From NCBI RefSeq assembly GCF_041261205.1, contig NZ_JBGCCH010000001.1:806001-870000 (forward strand): 64,000 bases of DNA, read 5' to 3'. Within the stretch, counting starts at the first letter, position 1. The number at the start of each line of letters is the position of its first letter. The position numbers and the translations under genes are program-made. This document shows positions 54,919 to 61,063 of this stretch, piece by piece. This DNA is from Catenulispora sp. MAP5-51. GTDB lineage: Bacteria; Actinomycetota; Actinomycetes; Streptomycetales; Catenulisporaceae. The notes beneath the pieces were generated by a model. It did not search any database, was not told the origin of the DNA, and saw only the letters and a list, made by a program, of their open reading frames with translations.

Positions 54919-55385
54919 GGGCTTTCCGATTTCTTCCAGGCCATGGAATCGAAGGTTTCGATGATCTTCTTCCAGCCGGTCGTCCGATGTCCCCCGGTCG
55001 GGAGCGAGTCGTCGAGCGACACCTCGGTGCCGACCGGGACCTCAGGGGATTTGTCGTCGATGGCGACCACGACGGTGAACTCCGGGTCCGCGGGATCATG
55101 GCGGACGACGTATTTGCCGTCGCGGAGTTCCGTTTCCATAGCGAAATCGGCGAGAGGCGCTTGGAAAGTCTGGCCGTTCGGGAAGCGGAGCAGGAGTATG
55201 TCGCCCTGCACCGGGACCTGGTCATCCGCCACGCGTGCCGCGAGTTCCTTGATCGCCAGGGTCGGGTAGAGATACAGCCACGAGCCTGAACGTCGTGAGC
55301 TCGAGACAGTGAGCAGATGGTAGGGCAATGCAGATCTCCAGACTCGGCGCGGACAGGCGTCGAGGTTATCCCGCCGCCTCCTCAA
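54915..55385 (-). CDS. Hypothetical protein coupled to the NRPS gene
   Basis: A 156-residue protein of unknown family. The credible part (from about residue 35) is a small beta domain: VPVQGDILLLRFPNGQTFQ, ETELRDGKYVVRHDPADPE and VAIDDKSPEVPVGTEV. The start is uncertain: a TTG at 55385 overlaps the NRPS stop (TTGA), and no ATG or GTG gives a good ribosome binding site. The 3' end overlaps the convergent C-domain gene by 4 bp. It is probably co-transcribed with the NRPS; its role cannot be inferred. Confidence 0.5.
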   Translation of the reverse strand: MRRRRDNLDACPRRVWRSALPYHLLTVSSSRRSGSWLYLYPTLAIKELAARVADDQVPVQGDILLLRFPNGQTFQAPLADFAMETELRDGKYVVRHDPADPEFTVVVAIDDKSPEVPVGTEVSLDDSLPTGGHRTTGWKKIIETFDSMAWKKSESP

Positions 55386-58300: not shown

Positions 58301-61063
58301 CTCGCCGAGCTCCACGCGGTAGCCGCGGATCTTCACCTGGTGGTCCCGGCGTCCCAGGAACTCCAGCTGGCCGTCCGAGCGGAACCGCGCGACGTCGCCG
58401 GTGCGGTACATGCGCGCGCCGGGGACGCCGCCGTAGGGGTCGGGCACGAACTTCTCGGCGGTCAGCCCGGGGCGGGCGAAGTAGCCGCGGGCCACGCCGT
58501 CCCCGCCTATGCACAACTCGCCGGGTACTCCGACGGGGACCGGGTTCAGGGCGTCGTCGAGGACGTACATGCGGGTATTGGCGATCGGTCGGCCGATCGG
58601 GATCGTCGCGCCGGGATCGGATCCGACCTCGTGGATCGAGCAGCCGACGACCGTCTCGGTCGGCCCGTACTCGTTGATGATCCGTGCGCGCGGGAAGATC
58701 CGGCGCCACGCCGCGACGTTCTCGGGCCGCAGCTCGTCGCCTCCGAGGACGAAGGTCCGTACGGAGTCCAGCCCTTCGCGGCCTTCGTACCCTTGAAGAT
58801 GGCCGCGCAGCACGCCGAGGTGGCCGGGAGTGGCTTTCACCAGGCTGAAATCGCGGGACTCGGTCAGGGCGGCGGCCAGCACTGCCAGGCTTCGATCCGG
58901 AGGTAGAACCGTGACGTCATTGCCAGTGATCAAAGGCAGCCAGAGGTTCGGGACCGACAGATCGAAGGCGGGAGAGCCGAGCATCGGGGCACCGGAGGCG
59001 CCGTCCATGCCGTAGGCGCCGATCGCCCAGGTCAGGTAGTTGACGAGGCCGCGATGCGTGACCATGACGCCCTTGGGTCGGCCGGTCGAGCCCGAGGTGT
59101 GCATGATGTAGCACAGGGCGTCAGGGTCCGTATTCGTGGCGGGACGGCGGCAGCGCGGCTCCGCGTCGAGGGCGGCGGCGTCCCGGTCCAGACACAGCGC
59201 CGTGCGACGCAGCATCGGCGGCAGCAGGTCGAGCAACCCTTCCCGGGTCACCACGATCCGCGCGCGGGTGTCCCCGATGACGAAGGACAGGCGTTCGGCG
59301 GGGTGGCCGGGGTCCAGCGGGACGTAGGTGCCACCGGCCTTGAGGACGCCGAGCAGCGCCACGAACAGGCCGACGCCGTGGTCCAGGCACACCGCGACCG
59401 GCGTCTCGCGGTCCACTCCTTCGAGGCGTAGCCGATGCGCCAGTTGATTGGCGCGCTCGTCCAGCTCGCGGTAGGTGGTGATCGTGCCGTCGGCGTCGAT
59501 GACCGCGGCGGCGTCCGGGACGCGGTCGGCCTGGTGCTCGACGAGAGCGTGCACCGGGACTGCCGGGATCTCTTGCCGGGTCTCATTCCAGGTGCGCAGA
59601 ACCAGTTCCCGCTCACGCTCCGGGACATGGTCCAACGCGGACAACCGGGCCGCCGGATCGGCGAGCGCCGCGTCCAGGACGCCGACGACGCGCTCGGCCA
59701 GACGCTCGGCGTCAGCGCTGTCGAAGAGGTCTGATGCGCATTCGAGCTGGAGTTCGACGACCTCGGGGCGGTTGACCGCGATCATGGTGAGGTCGAACTT
59801 CTGCGAGCCGTTGTGCAGCTGCACGGGTTCGACGTCCAGGCCCGGGATGCGCCAGCGCCCGGCGTCGGCCTGGACCGACTGGAACAGGACTTGGAACAGG
59901 GTGTTGCGAGAGCTGTCGCGGGCCGGCCGGACCGCCGCGACGACCTGTTCGAAGGACACGTCCTGATGGTCGAGCGCCCCGGCGACCTCCTCGGCGGTCC
60001 GGGCCAGGGCGTCGGCGAAGCCGGGGTCGCCGGTGAGGTCGACCGGGACGGCGACGGTGTTGGCGAACATGCCGAGCAGGGGTTCGGTCTGGCGCCACGC
60101 GCGGCCCAGGGTGAGCGTGCCGATCGCGAAGCGGTTCTGGCCGCTGGCCCGGCCAAGGACAGCGGCGAAGGCCGTGAACAAGGTGGCGAAGACCGTGGTA
60201 CCTCGGTCTGCGACGAAGGCGCGCAGGGCGGCGGTGGTCTTCTCGGGCAGCGTGACGGAGACGCTGCCGCCGCGGAAGGTGGGCTGCGCGGGACGCGGCC
60301 GGGTGGTCGGCAGGCGCAGGATGTGGTCGACGGGCCCGAGTTTGGCGCGCCAGTACTCGATCTGCTTCTCGGCGAGCGCGCCTTCGACGCGGTGTGCCTG
60401 CCACGCGGCGAAATCGGCGTACTGGAGTTCGGGTTCGGGGAAGTCGGCTCCGGCGTACAGCGCGCTGAACTCGCGGGCCAGGACGTCGCAGGACCACTCG
60501 TCGCTGACGATGTGGTGCATGGTCAGCAGCAGCAAGGCTTCGGTCGGCGTGGTCTGATACACGCGGACCCGGAACAGCGGGCCGTGGCGGAGGTCGAAGG
60601 GCTGCGCGACTTCGTGGGTGGCCAACGCGAGCGCGGCGGTGCGGCCGTCGGGGGCGGCGGGGGCTGCGGGGGCGACAGAGGCGGCGGCCAGGTCGACGAC
60701 CTCGATGTCCGCGCCCTCGGGCGGCAGCGGCACCTGGACCGGATCGGCCTGATCTGCCGGATCGGGGTAGACGCTGCGCAGGATCTCGTGGCGGCGGACC
60801 AGCTCGTCGGCCGCGTGACGCAGGGCATCGACGGCGATGGGGCCGCGCAGCCACACGGCGCGGTAGACGCTGTAGACCGAGTTGTCCGCGAGGAACTGGT
60901 CCACGACCCACATGCTGTGCTGCACCGGCGACAAGGGCGCCGGGCCGCCACCGGGCCTCGGGGCCGGTCCCGCCGGACGTACGGTCGCGCCGCGCAGCCT
61001 GCGCTCCAGCAACGCCCGGCGCTCCGGGGAGAGGGTGCGGGCTCCGGGGGTGGTGGTGGACAT
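55382..61063 (-). CDS. Single-module NRPS, C-A-PCP-E with fused S12 serine-hydrolase domain
   Basis: An 1893-residue synthetase. C domain about 43-470 (HHIVSDE at 183-189, the usual Gly replaced by Glu). A domain about 505-1010: HTSGSTGRPKG, EYGPTE, YRTGD and Lys996; pocket residues D701, L702, P705, K743, V772, G774, E798, V806, G807, K996 read DLPKVGEVGK, near Asn codes. PCP has Ser1055 in LGGDSI. E domain about 1110-1530, with NHYAVDSVSW at 1239-1248 (second His kept). The C-terminal 340 residues are a beta-lactamase/PBP-like domain with S1608-x-x-K1611, Y1708-S-N1710 and H1849-G-G, where a thioesterase would be expected. No membrane helix is seen. ATG 61063 has GGAG 7 nt upstream. It would load an amino acid, epimerise it and release or process the product hydrolytically or by transfer. 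Confidence 0.93.
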   Translation of the reverse strand: MSTTTPGARTLSPERRALLERRLRGATVRPAGPAPRPGGGPAPLSPVQHSMWVVDQFLADNSVYSVYRAVWLRGPIAVDALRHAADELVRRHEILRSVYPDPADQADPVQVPLPPEGADIEVVDLAAASVAPAAPAAPDGRTAALALATHEVAQPFDLRHGPLFRVRVYQTTPTEALLLLTMHHIVSDEWSCDVLAREFSALYAGADFPEPELQYADFAAWQAHRVEGALAEKQIEYWRAKLGPVDHILRLPTTRPRPAQPTFRGGSVSVTLPEKTTAALRAFVADRGTTVFATLFTAFAAVLGRASGQNRFAIGTLTLGRAWRQTEPLLGMFANTVAVPVDLTGDPGFADALARTAEEVAGALDHQDVSFEQVVAAVRPARDSSRNTLFQVLFQSVQADAGRWRIPGLDVEPVQLHNGSQKFDLTMIAVNRPEVVELQLECASDLFDSADAERLAERVVGVLDAALADPAARLSALDHVPERERELVLRTWNETRQEIPAVPVHALVEHQADRVPDAAAVIDADGTITTYRELDERANQLAHRLRLEGVDRETPVAVCLDHGVGLFVALLGVLKAGGTYVPLDPGHPAERLSFVIGDTRARIVVTREGLLDLLPPMLRRTALCLDRDAAALDAEPRCRRPATNTDPDALCYIMHTSGSTGRPKGVMVTHRGLVNYLTWAIGAYGMDGASGAPMLGSPAFDLSVPNLWLPLITGNDVTVLPPDRSLAVLAAALTESRDFSLVKATPGHLGVLRGHLQGYEGREGLDSVRTFVLGGDELRPENVAAWRRIFPRARIINEYGPTETVVGCSIHEVGSDPGATIPIGRPIANTRMYVLDDALNPVPVGVPGELCIGGDGVARGYFARPGLTAEKFVPDPYGGVPGARMYRTGDVARFRSDGQLEFLGRRDHQVKIRGYRVELGEIEAVLARHPQVGEAVVTVHDDGPGRRRVVAYIVAAAGAPRDPAPLAAFAAAELPEHMVPALWVFLPELPLTAGAKIDRDRLPAPDAAAHRLDDGGQTSEPVGDGERELARIWSEVLRVESVGRHDDFFALGGDSILAIQVATRAKQAGIGVTPRQLFEHRTVAALVEAVAETAGATSIEVVEPREPASRSGALPPTPIQHLMADTGIELDRYVMPVFVQWQGRVQPEVLDAALVALVRQHDALRIRVLRGADGLEASIVESVPDSLLDVAEDDTEDADGDLAALAASAVERLSLSDGPVLRGVLLRTATGDRVALLANHYAVDSVSWAILLEDLETAYRQLELGEPVELPQPTTSFKEFAERSAEYASSDEFAAEADRWFQARDGGVGLPVDGDATGDGVEHVIRCALAEEETRTLIAVVPSAYGTRIDDVLLTAVAGVVGRWTGRNVVDLEQERHGRHAPFDDVDLTRTVGWFSAFTPVRLHVTAGDWGARVRSVSAQLTALPPDGLGAGLARYSRRDGRVWPARRPGIAVNYLGRLDDQHGGLSLMRRLAAPQGWRVAAGGTSPHAIEVNAAVVEGRLQTAWSFSEAVFRPETVSALAEDFIADLKELITHCAAVGTAVRGGLSHGALFPGAPLILESMAENGIPGAALAVIGDDGEVTAAWGEGVLRAGSAEPVTGETVFPVGSISKHFTALAVMRLVDRGVLALDEDANRYLRSWRVPSFDGDSGPITLRHLLGHTSGFRELKQLYLPPDGPVPTLVEVLEGGTGFTDGPVRPHFAPGTAFEYSNANSAVLEQMLVDVTGESFATAVTGLVLDPLGLTATRFAAPEPDPEPASPAATPLTGHQPDGRQTDPTSHLSIPAAAGGIWSTASDLAHLARDLQRAATGRPSVLLSHEAAAQMLHRPAFTNYGLGVTLHGTGPDQWFSHGGEVPGFRSVLIAYAARPGGFALVTNSARGAGLMYDILLNAEAD

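What the first reader, a model, noticed from the sequence alone, without database searches (positions are those of the whole stretch)
55382..61063. NRPS module with a fused S12 serine-hydrolase domain after its epimerisation domain
The sequence shows C-A-PCP-E followed in the same polypeptide by a complete SxxK/YxN/HGG domain. Established: PBP-type thioesterases (SurE type) are S12-like and are usually separate proteins that release chains ending in D-residues; ClbP/XcnG peptidases, also S12, remove an N-acyl-D-Asn cap and are separate membrane proteins. A fusion to a one-module synthetase is unusual and could represent a self-contained D-amino-acid loading and release machine.
Basis: partly seen in the sequence, partly recalled or inferred. 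Interest (0 to 1): 0.92.

Follow-up and report, generated by a model that had tools for sequence, protein, structure and literature searches.

The report
NRPS with built-in S12 release domain
A bacterial peptide-assembly enzyme ends in a built-in serine hydrolase of the penicillin-recognising type, most likely the part that cuts the finished peptide off; similar fusions recur in streptomycetes and their kin and look like a line separate from the known stand-alone releasing enzyme SurE.

Summary
Window 55382-61063 (minus strand, 1893 aa) is one intact gene: C-A-PCP-E followed in frame by an S12 (Pfam Beta-lactamase) domain with SxxK, YxN and HGG motifs. A second species has the same gene, under purifying selection: no assembly join.

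The fusion is not a one-off. I found 62 distinct NRPS-fused S12 domains (36 after clustering at 80%), each the last domain seen, in 25 of 391 genomes of the order. Trees put them with stand-alone hydrolases of Kribbella and others, apart from SurE/Ulm16. Joining them to a well-sampled SurE group is rejected (AU p 0.0005), though not in a sparser set (p 0.107). They lack SurE's C-terminal extra domain.

One embedded "SurE" domain, BifB (biffamycin, 2026), is published as unique; whether BifB belongs here is untested. 50 of the 62 have lost the Tyr of YxN, 44 to Lys; the window keeps Tyr.

Most likely it is the release domain of a terminal module whose chain ends in a D-residue (predicted D-Asn). 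It is hardly self-contained: a second NRPS, a PCP and a C domain lie alongside. Chemistry is untested.

The parts
55382..61063 (-). NRPS gene, 1893 aa from ATG (in-frame GTG at 61153), C-A-PCP-E-S12
59603..60940 (-). Condensation domain, motif HHIVSDEWS; best solved matches by sequence are Txo2, Txo1, PCP-C didomains and TycC
58076..59539 (-). Adenylation domain, 10-residue pocket code DLPKVGEVGK (resembles the Asn code, recalled)
57794..57982 (-). Peptidyl carrier protein, GGDSI with Ser1055
56480..57730 (-). Epimerisation domain, NHYAVDSVSW (second His kept, first His is Asn, as in G012), EQERHGRH, NYLG
55427..56392 (-). S12 serine-hydrolase domain: SISK 1608, YSN 1708, HGG 1849; AlphaFold2 model of residues around it pLDDT 89.4, pTM 0.90; 14 residues follow the Pfam match
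61298..61492 (-). MbtH-like protein
53599..54915 (+). stand-alone condensation-domain protein; 89% identical protein in G012
50182..51816 (+). MFS transporter, possible exporter of the product; relative in G012
51843..53399 (-). acyl-CoA carboxyltransferase-like protein; relative in G012
49630..50010 (+). glyoxalase-like protein; relative in G012
48233..49276 (-). beta-eliminating lyase (PF01212); relative in G012
61564..62904 (-). partial similarity to Zn-dependent amidohydrolases (NCBIfam, below cut-offs; no Pfam match); relative in G012; its start overlaps the next gene
62668..64000 (+). ArgH-like lyase (continues beyond the window, L009:2669-4630; start uncertain)

Best explanation
The gene encodes the terminal module of a short assembly line. 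Steps: the A domain loads an amino acid predicted to be L-Asn on the PCP; the C domain joins it to an upstream chain, probably from the neighbouring C-A-PCP synthetase; the E domain turns the C-terminal residue to D; the fused S12 domain takes the chain from the PCP onto Ser1608 (helped by Lys1611 and Tyr1708) and releases it. Because few modules are seen here, hydrolysis or small-ring closure of a di- or tripeptide ending in D-Asn is more likely than a large macrolactam. Shown: domain order, intact motifs, conservation in a second species, terminal position in the fused relatives. Inferred: substrate, release role, order of the two synthetases, chemistry. The domain belongs to an S12 line that the better-sampled trees keep apart from SurE-type thioesterases.
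For: S12 is the last of the domains I searched for (C, A, T, E, S12) in all 75 fused ORFs counted, duplicates included, and ends 13-75 aa before the stop, where thioesterases normally sit. The S, K and H motif residues are invariant in 62 of 62 distinct fused domains. Pfam shows no thioesterase domain in the window protein. A relative, L065, ends with the same pocket code, E and S12: C-A-T-C-A(DLPKVGEVGK)-T-E-S12. The gene and 9 of 16 neighbour genes compared have relatives in a 20-kb stretch of G012. In the published biffamycin system, deleting an embedded S12-type domain at the end of BifB abolishes the product (PMC13285481, section 2.6 read).
Against: I saw no assay of any enzyme of this group, unless BifB proves to be a member. 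The Asn prediction rests on a recalled code with differences at two positions (T to P, L to V). The E domain has Asn in place of the first motif His (the second is kept), so epimerisation is likely but not certain. The C domain could be a starter type; I did not classify it beyond solved matches. The relatives were not searched for thioesterase domains. The AlphaFold model could not be compared with solved structures.
Confidence: 0.72

Rival explanations
1. It is a genuine SurE-type (PBP-type) thioesterase that became embedded, i.e. a head-to-tail peptide cyclase in cis, as BifB is described.
For: Same superfamily, same YSN and H motifs; it follows an E domain, so the chain end would be D, as SurE-type enzymes require (PMC11735501 passages; PMC7565604 passages). 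The profile of the fused domains finds SurE 6ksu at 147 bits, close to its best hits IS11 (152) and 2qmi (151). AU tests on 82 rows with three SurE-type sequences did not exclude it (p 0.107 for all fused, 0.102 for the window).
Against: With 13 SurE-type rows, joining the fused domains or the window alone to SurE is rejected (p 0.000474; p 0.000201). SurE-type proteins form one clade, 100/99. No extra domain after S12: 14 aa in the window against 62-133 aa, mostly about 108, in 21 SurE-type ORFs. The own genome has a stand-alone SurE-type protein beside another NRPS.
Confidence: 0.12
2. It is a ClbP-like D-Asn peptidase in cis that trims an N-acyl-D-Asn cap from the product.
For: C-A-T-E with a predicted Asn code is the layout that I recall for prodrug starter modules, and ClbP is an S12 enzyme specific for D-Asn (PMC9889268 passages).
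Against: Two of three ClbP pocket markers were tested: the position of E92 is Pro and that of S188 is Asn in the window (the paper reports that S188N keeps reduced activity). N331 was not tested. No room for the three-helix membrane part that ClbP needs (14-aa tail). The ClbP chains score 106 bits with the fused profile, below SurE, IS11 and R61.
Confidence: 0.06
3. It is an editing hydrolase that clears wrong (for example unepimerised) residues from the PCP, with true release done elsewhere.
For: Another possible release or transfer protein, the stand-alone C domain, lies next door.
Against: Terminal position in all 75 fused ORFs, including three- to five-module synthetases.
Confidence: 0.08
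4. Artefact or inert passenger domain.
For: The nearest stand-alone relatives are hydrolases of unknown function.
Against: Intact motifs, same fusion in a second species, dN/dS about 0.17 in S12, 62 distinct fused domains with S, K and H kept.
Confidence: 0.02

Closest known systems
BifB terminal 'SurE' domain, biffamycin A (PMC13285481, Angew 2026)
   Same: [quoted passage not shown] deletion abolishes the product (section 2.6 read)
   Different: Follows the PCP of a Gly module directly, in a dimodular protein; described as SurE family on predicted structure (passages). I had no BifB sequence, so whether it belongs to the window's line is untested
SurE / Ulm16 PBP-type thioesterases
   Same: S12 with SxxK/YxN/H motifs; act on chains with a D-residue at the end
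   Different: Stand-alone, with a lipocalin-like C-terminal domain (PMC11735501 passages); separate clade here
ClbP and other prodrug-activating S12 peptidases
   Same: S12; D-Asn context
   Different: Membrane-bound separate proteins; E92 and S188 equivalents differ in the window
Stand-alone S12 hydrolases of Rubrobacter, Thermomicrobiales, Micromonospora and Kribbella
   Same: Nearest non-fused relatives in the trees
   Different: No PCP in frame by my profiles; function unknown to me

Membership tests
S12 / Beta-lactamase superfamily (PF00144) | profile match above the curated cut-off with SxxK, YxN and H motif | tested here: met
   193 bits against 27; SISK, YSN, HGG
PBP-type thioesterase (SurE family) | groups with SurE and Ulm16 in a tree | tested here: not met
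   AU p 0.000201 for the window with 13 SurE-type rows; the sparser set, three SurE-type rows, gave p 0.102
PBP-type thioesterase (SurE family) | C-terminal lipocalin-like domain | tested here: not met
   14 aa after the domain; 13-75 aa in all 75 fused ORFs
PBP-type thioesterase (SurE family) | separate protein acting in trans | tested here: not met
   in-frame C-terminal fusion; BifB is described as an exception
PBP-type thioesterase (SurE family) | releases chains with a D-residue at the C-terminus | tested here: inconclusive
   E domain directly before it; no assay
PBP-type thioesterase (SurE family) | head-to-tail macrolactam formation | not testable with these tools
   needs an enzyme assay
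ClbP-type prodrug peptidase | E92 and S188 (Ser or Thr) equivalents | tested here: not met
   Pro and Asn in the window
ClbP-type prodrug peptidase | N331 equivalent | not tested
   no ClbP alignment was displayed
ClbP-type prodrug peptidase | three-helix membrane part after the catalytic domain | tested here: not met
   14-aa tail; no membrane predictor was run
NRPS terminal module | C-A-PCP with a release domain last | tested here: inconclusive
   C-A-PCP-E with S12 last; that S12 releases is inferred

The most novel reading that the evidence does not exclude
NRPS-embedded S12 domains are their own line of in-cis chain-release enzymes, sharing ancestry with a line of stand-alone hydrolases and not with SurE, and the larger part has replaced the class-C catalytic Tyr, mostly by Lys, giving a Ser-Lys...Lys release chemistry that I found in no paper on S12 thioesterases; the window is a divergent Tyr-type member that ends its chain in D-Asn.
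Probability: 0.55. Interest if true: 0.78.

Novelty: new variant of a known kind. Interest (0 to 1): 0.6.

Why it matters
[quoted passage not shown] Here S12 domains built into NRPS ends turn up in 25 of 391 genomes of the Streptomyces order, and they look not to be of SurE descent. That would predict how NRPSs that seem to lack a thioesterase release their chains, offer release or cyclisation biocatalysts already joined to their carrier proteins, and make a catalytic question testable: how an S12 enzyme works with Lys in place of Tyr.

Tried and rejected
Frameshift or assembly join: rejected by one open frame, even third-position GC and an orthologue in G012. SurE origin: first AU tests inconclusive (p 0.107 and 0.102); after adding SurE-type sequences it was rejected. 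One origin of all fused domains: SH-aLRT 100 in an 82-row tree, 0.707 in FastTree, but not recovered in the careful 69-row tree, where the fused rows need two changes and the stand-alone hydrolases sit inside them; AU does not reject one clade (p 0.369). So one origin, and the direction fused to stand-alone or back, stay open. The link between a preceding E domain and a kept Tyr (10 of 13 with E, 2 of 49 without; Fisher p 1.6e-7) is one change on the 82-row tree and is no independent evidence; three domains after E have Lys. Embedded SurE in G038: the 2769-aa open frame is a GC-rich extension of the frame of a stand-alone SurE that lies after a 4543-aa NRPS. In 21 SurE-type ORFs no A, PCP or E profile hit was in frame; 7 had a weak C-profile hit at a loose threshold, not examined. 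BifB itself was not found. Six pocket codes were sought in papers and gave nothing. Two listed papers were opened because they named a beta-lactamase domain or a terminal module, and did not describe a fusion in the passages seen.

Rows dropped before counting: three exact duplicates and two pieces of L154 under 230 aa; identical sequences again (163 left). The 82-row tree used 82 of these 163: all 36 fused rows left after clustering at 80%, 5 solved structures, 41 of 72 stand-alone representatives or extra rows. The 69-row tree used 23 of the 36 fused rows, 11 SurE-type loci (10 of 21 found, plus L010) with SurE and Ulm16, and left out eight long or distant rows on purpose. 2qmi was among these.
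Full report
1. The gene. On the minus strand, 55382-61063, one open frame of 1893 aa (ATG; an in-frame GTG lies 30 codons upstream) holds Condensation, AMP-binding, PP-binding, a second Condensation-type stretch with E-domain motifs, and PF00144 Beta-lactamase. Third-position GC stays 0.79-0.95 in the 18 bins counted. The own genome (10.9 Mb, 87 contigs) gave 94 matches to the protein, NRPS modules, other AMP-binding proteins and S12 proteins; among these 94 this gene is the only one whose S12 part lies in a long NRPS frame.

2. 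Conservation. In G012, same genus, the gene has the same C-A-T-E-S12 order (1903 aa) at 89% identity; dN/dS is about 0.21 for the gene and 0.17 for S12. Of 16 neighbouring genes compared, 9 have relatives in the 20-kb G012 stretch (80-96% identity). The two NRPSs were left out of that table, one gene was in a wrong frame, ORFs under 100 aa (MbtH) could not match, and genes beyond the stretch could not be seen.

3. Cluster. Beside the gene: MbtH, stand-alone C domain, MFS, acyl-CoA carboxyltransferase-like, glyoxalase-like, beta-eliminating lyase. Beyond the window on the same contig, which ends about 12 kb further: ArgH-like lyase, an SbnA-family-like PLP enzyme (244 bits, below the model's cut-off of 350), ATP-grasp ligase, stand-alone PCP, C-A-PCP NRPS, Lant_dehydr_N protein, FAD-type oxidoreductase, LuxR-type regulator. 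The ligase and the lyase match the two halves of one NCBI model, PRK02186, both below its cut-off. A diaminopropionate-like precursor is a guess from this. The second NRPS's A domain is 54-56% identical to the last A domains of five relatives that end in E-S12 (L058, L090, L098, L114, L151), against about 41% for the next five in the list.

4. Relatives. S12 searches gave matches at E <= 1e-32 in 25 of 391 genomes of the order and 7 of 394 of the class (five candidates scored per genome, so lower bounds), and with a relative as query 27 of 392 Streptomyces genomes at E <= 1e-35. Fusion was then checked by in-frame NRPS domains: in 27 of 29 fetched regions plus the window (the other two are a contig-edge ORF and a stand-alone protein), so in all 25 genomes; in 25 of the 27 genomes (28 loci; the other two genomes gave ORFs without PCP, at least one at a contig edge). 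The samples overlap. A scan of named genomes kept 79 loci (the best of 125 candidates), 18 of them fused. After removal of identical sequences 62 fused domains remain, 13 preceded by E and 49 by PCP; 36 after clustering at 80%. S12 is the last domain found in all 75 ORFs, with 13-75 aa after it. Named hosts of fused forms include Streptomyces xanthochromogenes, S. niveiscabiei, S. coeruleorubidus, Actinomadura roseirufa and Lentzea aerocolonigenes. Single-A-domain fusions not cut at the 5' end: window, L056, L083 (C-A-T-S12), and A-T-S12 in L078, L080, L082, L182 (starts not verified).

5. Trees. In 82 rows the fused domains plus two contig-edge ORFs form one clade (SH-aLRT 100), beside stand-alone hydrolases of Rubrobacter, Micromonospora, Thermomicrobiales and then Kribbella; SurE, Ulm16 and the own genome's SurE-type protein form a separate clade (99). 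In 69 rows with 13 SurE-type rows, SurE is 100/99 and the fused plus stand-alone group 99/98, but the fused rows are not one side of a branch: with that outgroup the window branches first, on a long branch, and the stand-alone hydrolases (100/99) sit beside the Tyr-less domains. AU tests: fused + SurE p 0.000474, window + SurE p 0.000201, fused as one clade p 0.369; in the sparser set the first two were 0.107 and 0.102. I conclude descent separate from SurE, with the number of origins and the direction open.

6. Motif change. Ser, Lys and His are invariant in all 62. The Tyr of YxN is kept in 12 and lost in 50 (44 Lys, 2 Asn, 2 Val, 1 Arg, 1 Ser); in the 36 clustered representatives 6 keep it. 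Of 96 sequences classed as stand-alone, 90 have Tyr; the six others are three ORFs at or near contig edges (L060, L102, L168: Lys) and three S12 proteins that directly follow a fused NRPS (L061, L182, L191: Ile, Ile, Leu). The Tyr-less domains form a clade (99; 100/99). The window has Tyr.

7. Substrate. The pocket code DLPKVGEVGK, read from motif alignment, resembles the Asn code DLTKLGEVGK, which I recall; no paper with these codes was found. L065's last module has the identical code before E-S12.

8. Literature. Review PMC11735501 (abstract and passages): PBP-type thioesterases are stand-alone, two-domain, trans-acting. PMC13285481 (abstract, outline, passages and section 2.6): BifB carries an embedded SurE domain, called unique; its deletion abolishes biffamycin. 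PMC9889268 (passages): ClbP D-Asn pocket. PMC7565604 and PMC5472815 (passages). Searches for earlier descriptions of NRPS-fused S12 domains gave, among what I opened, only the biffamycin paper; most listed papers were seen only as listings, and most subscription journals are not in that library.

9. Structure. AlphaFold2 gives a confident S12 model (pLDDT 89.4, pTM 0.90); comparison with solved structures was not possible.

Noticed in passing
50 of 62 fused domains, e.g. L057:11307-12560, L063:14416-15603: Tyr of the YxN motif replaced, mostly by Lys, with Ser, Lys and His kept
   Followed up: partly
L061:15691-16704, L174:2564-3580, L182:366-1418, L191:261-1358: A second, stand-alone S12 protein (338-365 aa; L061 and L174 are the same locus) begins at or overlaps the stop of the fused NRPS; the three distinct ones have also lost the Tyr, and the two placed in the tree are distant from the fused domains
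   Followed up: partly
L010:6195-7658 (own genome, C25): Stand-alone SurE-type thioesterase with the C-terminal extension, next to a large NRPS gene
   Followed up: yes
L009:2669-7942: ArgH-like lyase, SbnA-family-like enzyme and ATP-grasp ligase; lyase and ligase look like the two halves of the PRK02186 model, perhaps a diaminopropionate-like route
   Followed up: partly
L009:11624-14005: Lant_dehydr_N-type protein beside NRPS genes
   Followed up: no
window 32184-33683 (-): Another S12 protein, in the trees near IS11 and SurE types
   Followed up: partly
window 40852-48205: GH20 hexosaminidase, asparagine-synthase-like protein and a BTAD/NB-ARC regulator next to the cluster
   Followed up: no
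L057, L063, L068 and kin: Three-module Lys-type synthetases with a code pattern Thr-like (recalled), DLPKVAEVGK, DLPKVAEVGK and a 50-75 aa tail after S12; product unknown
   Followed up: no
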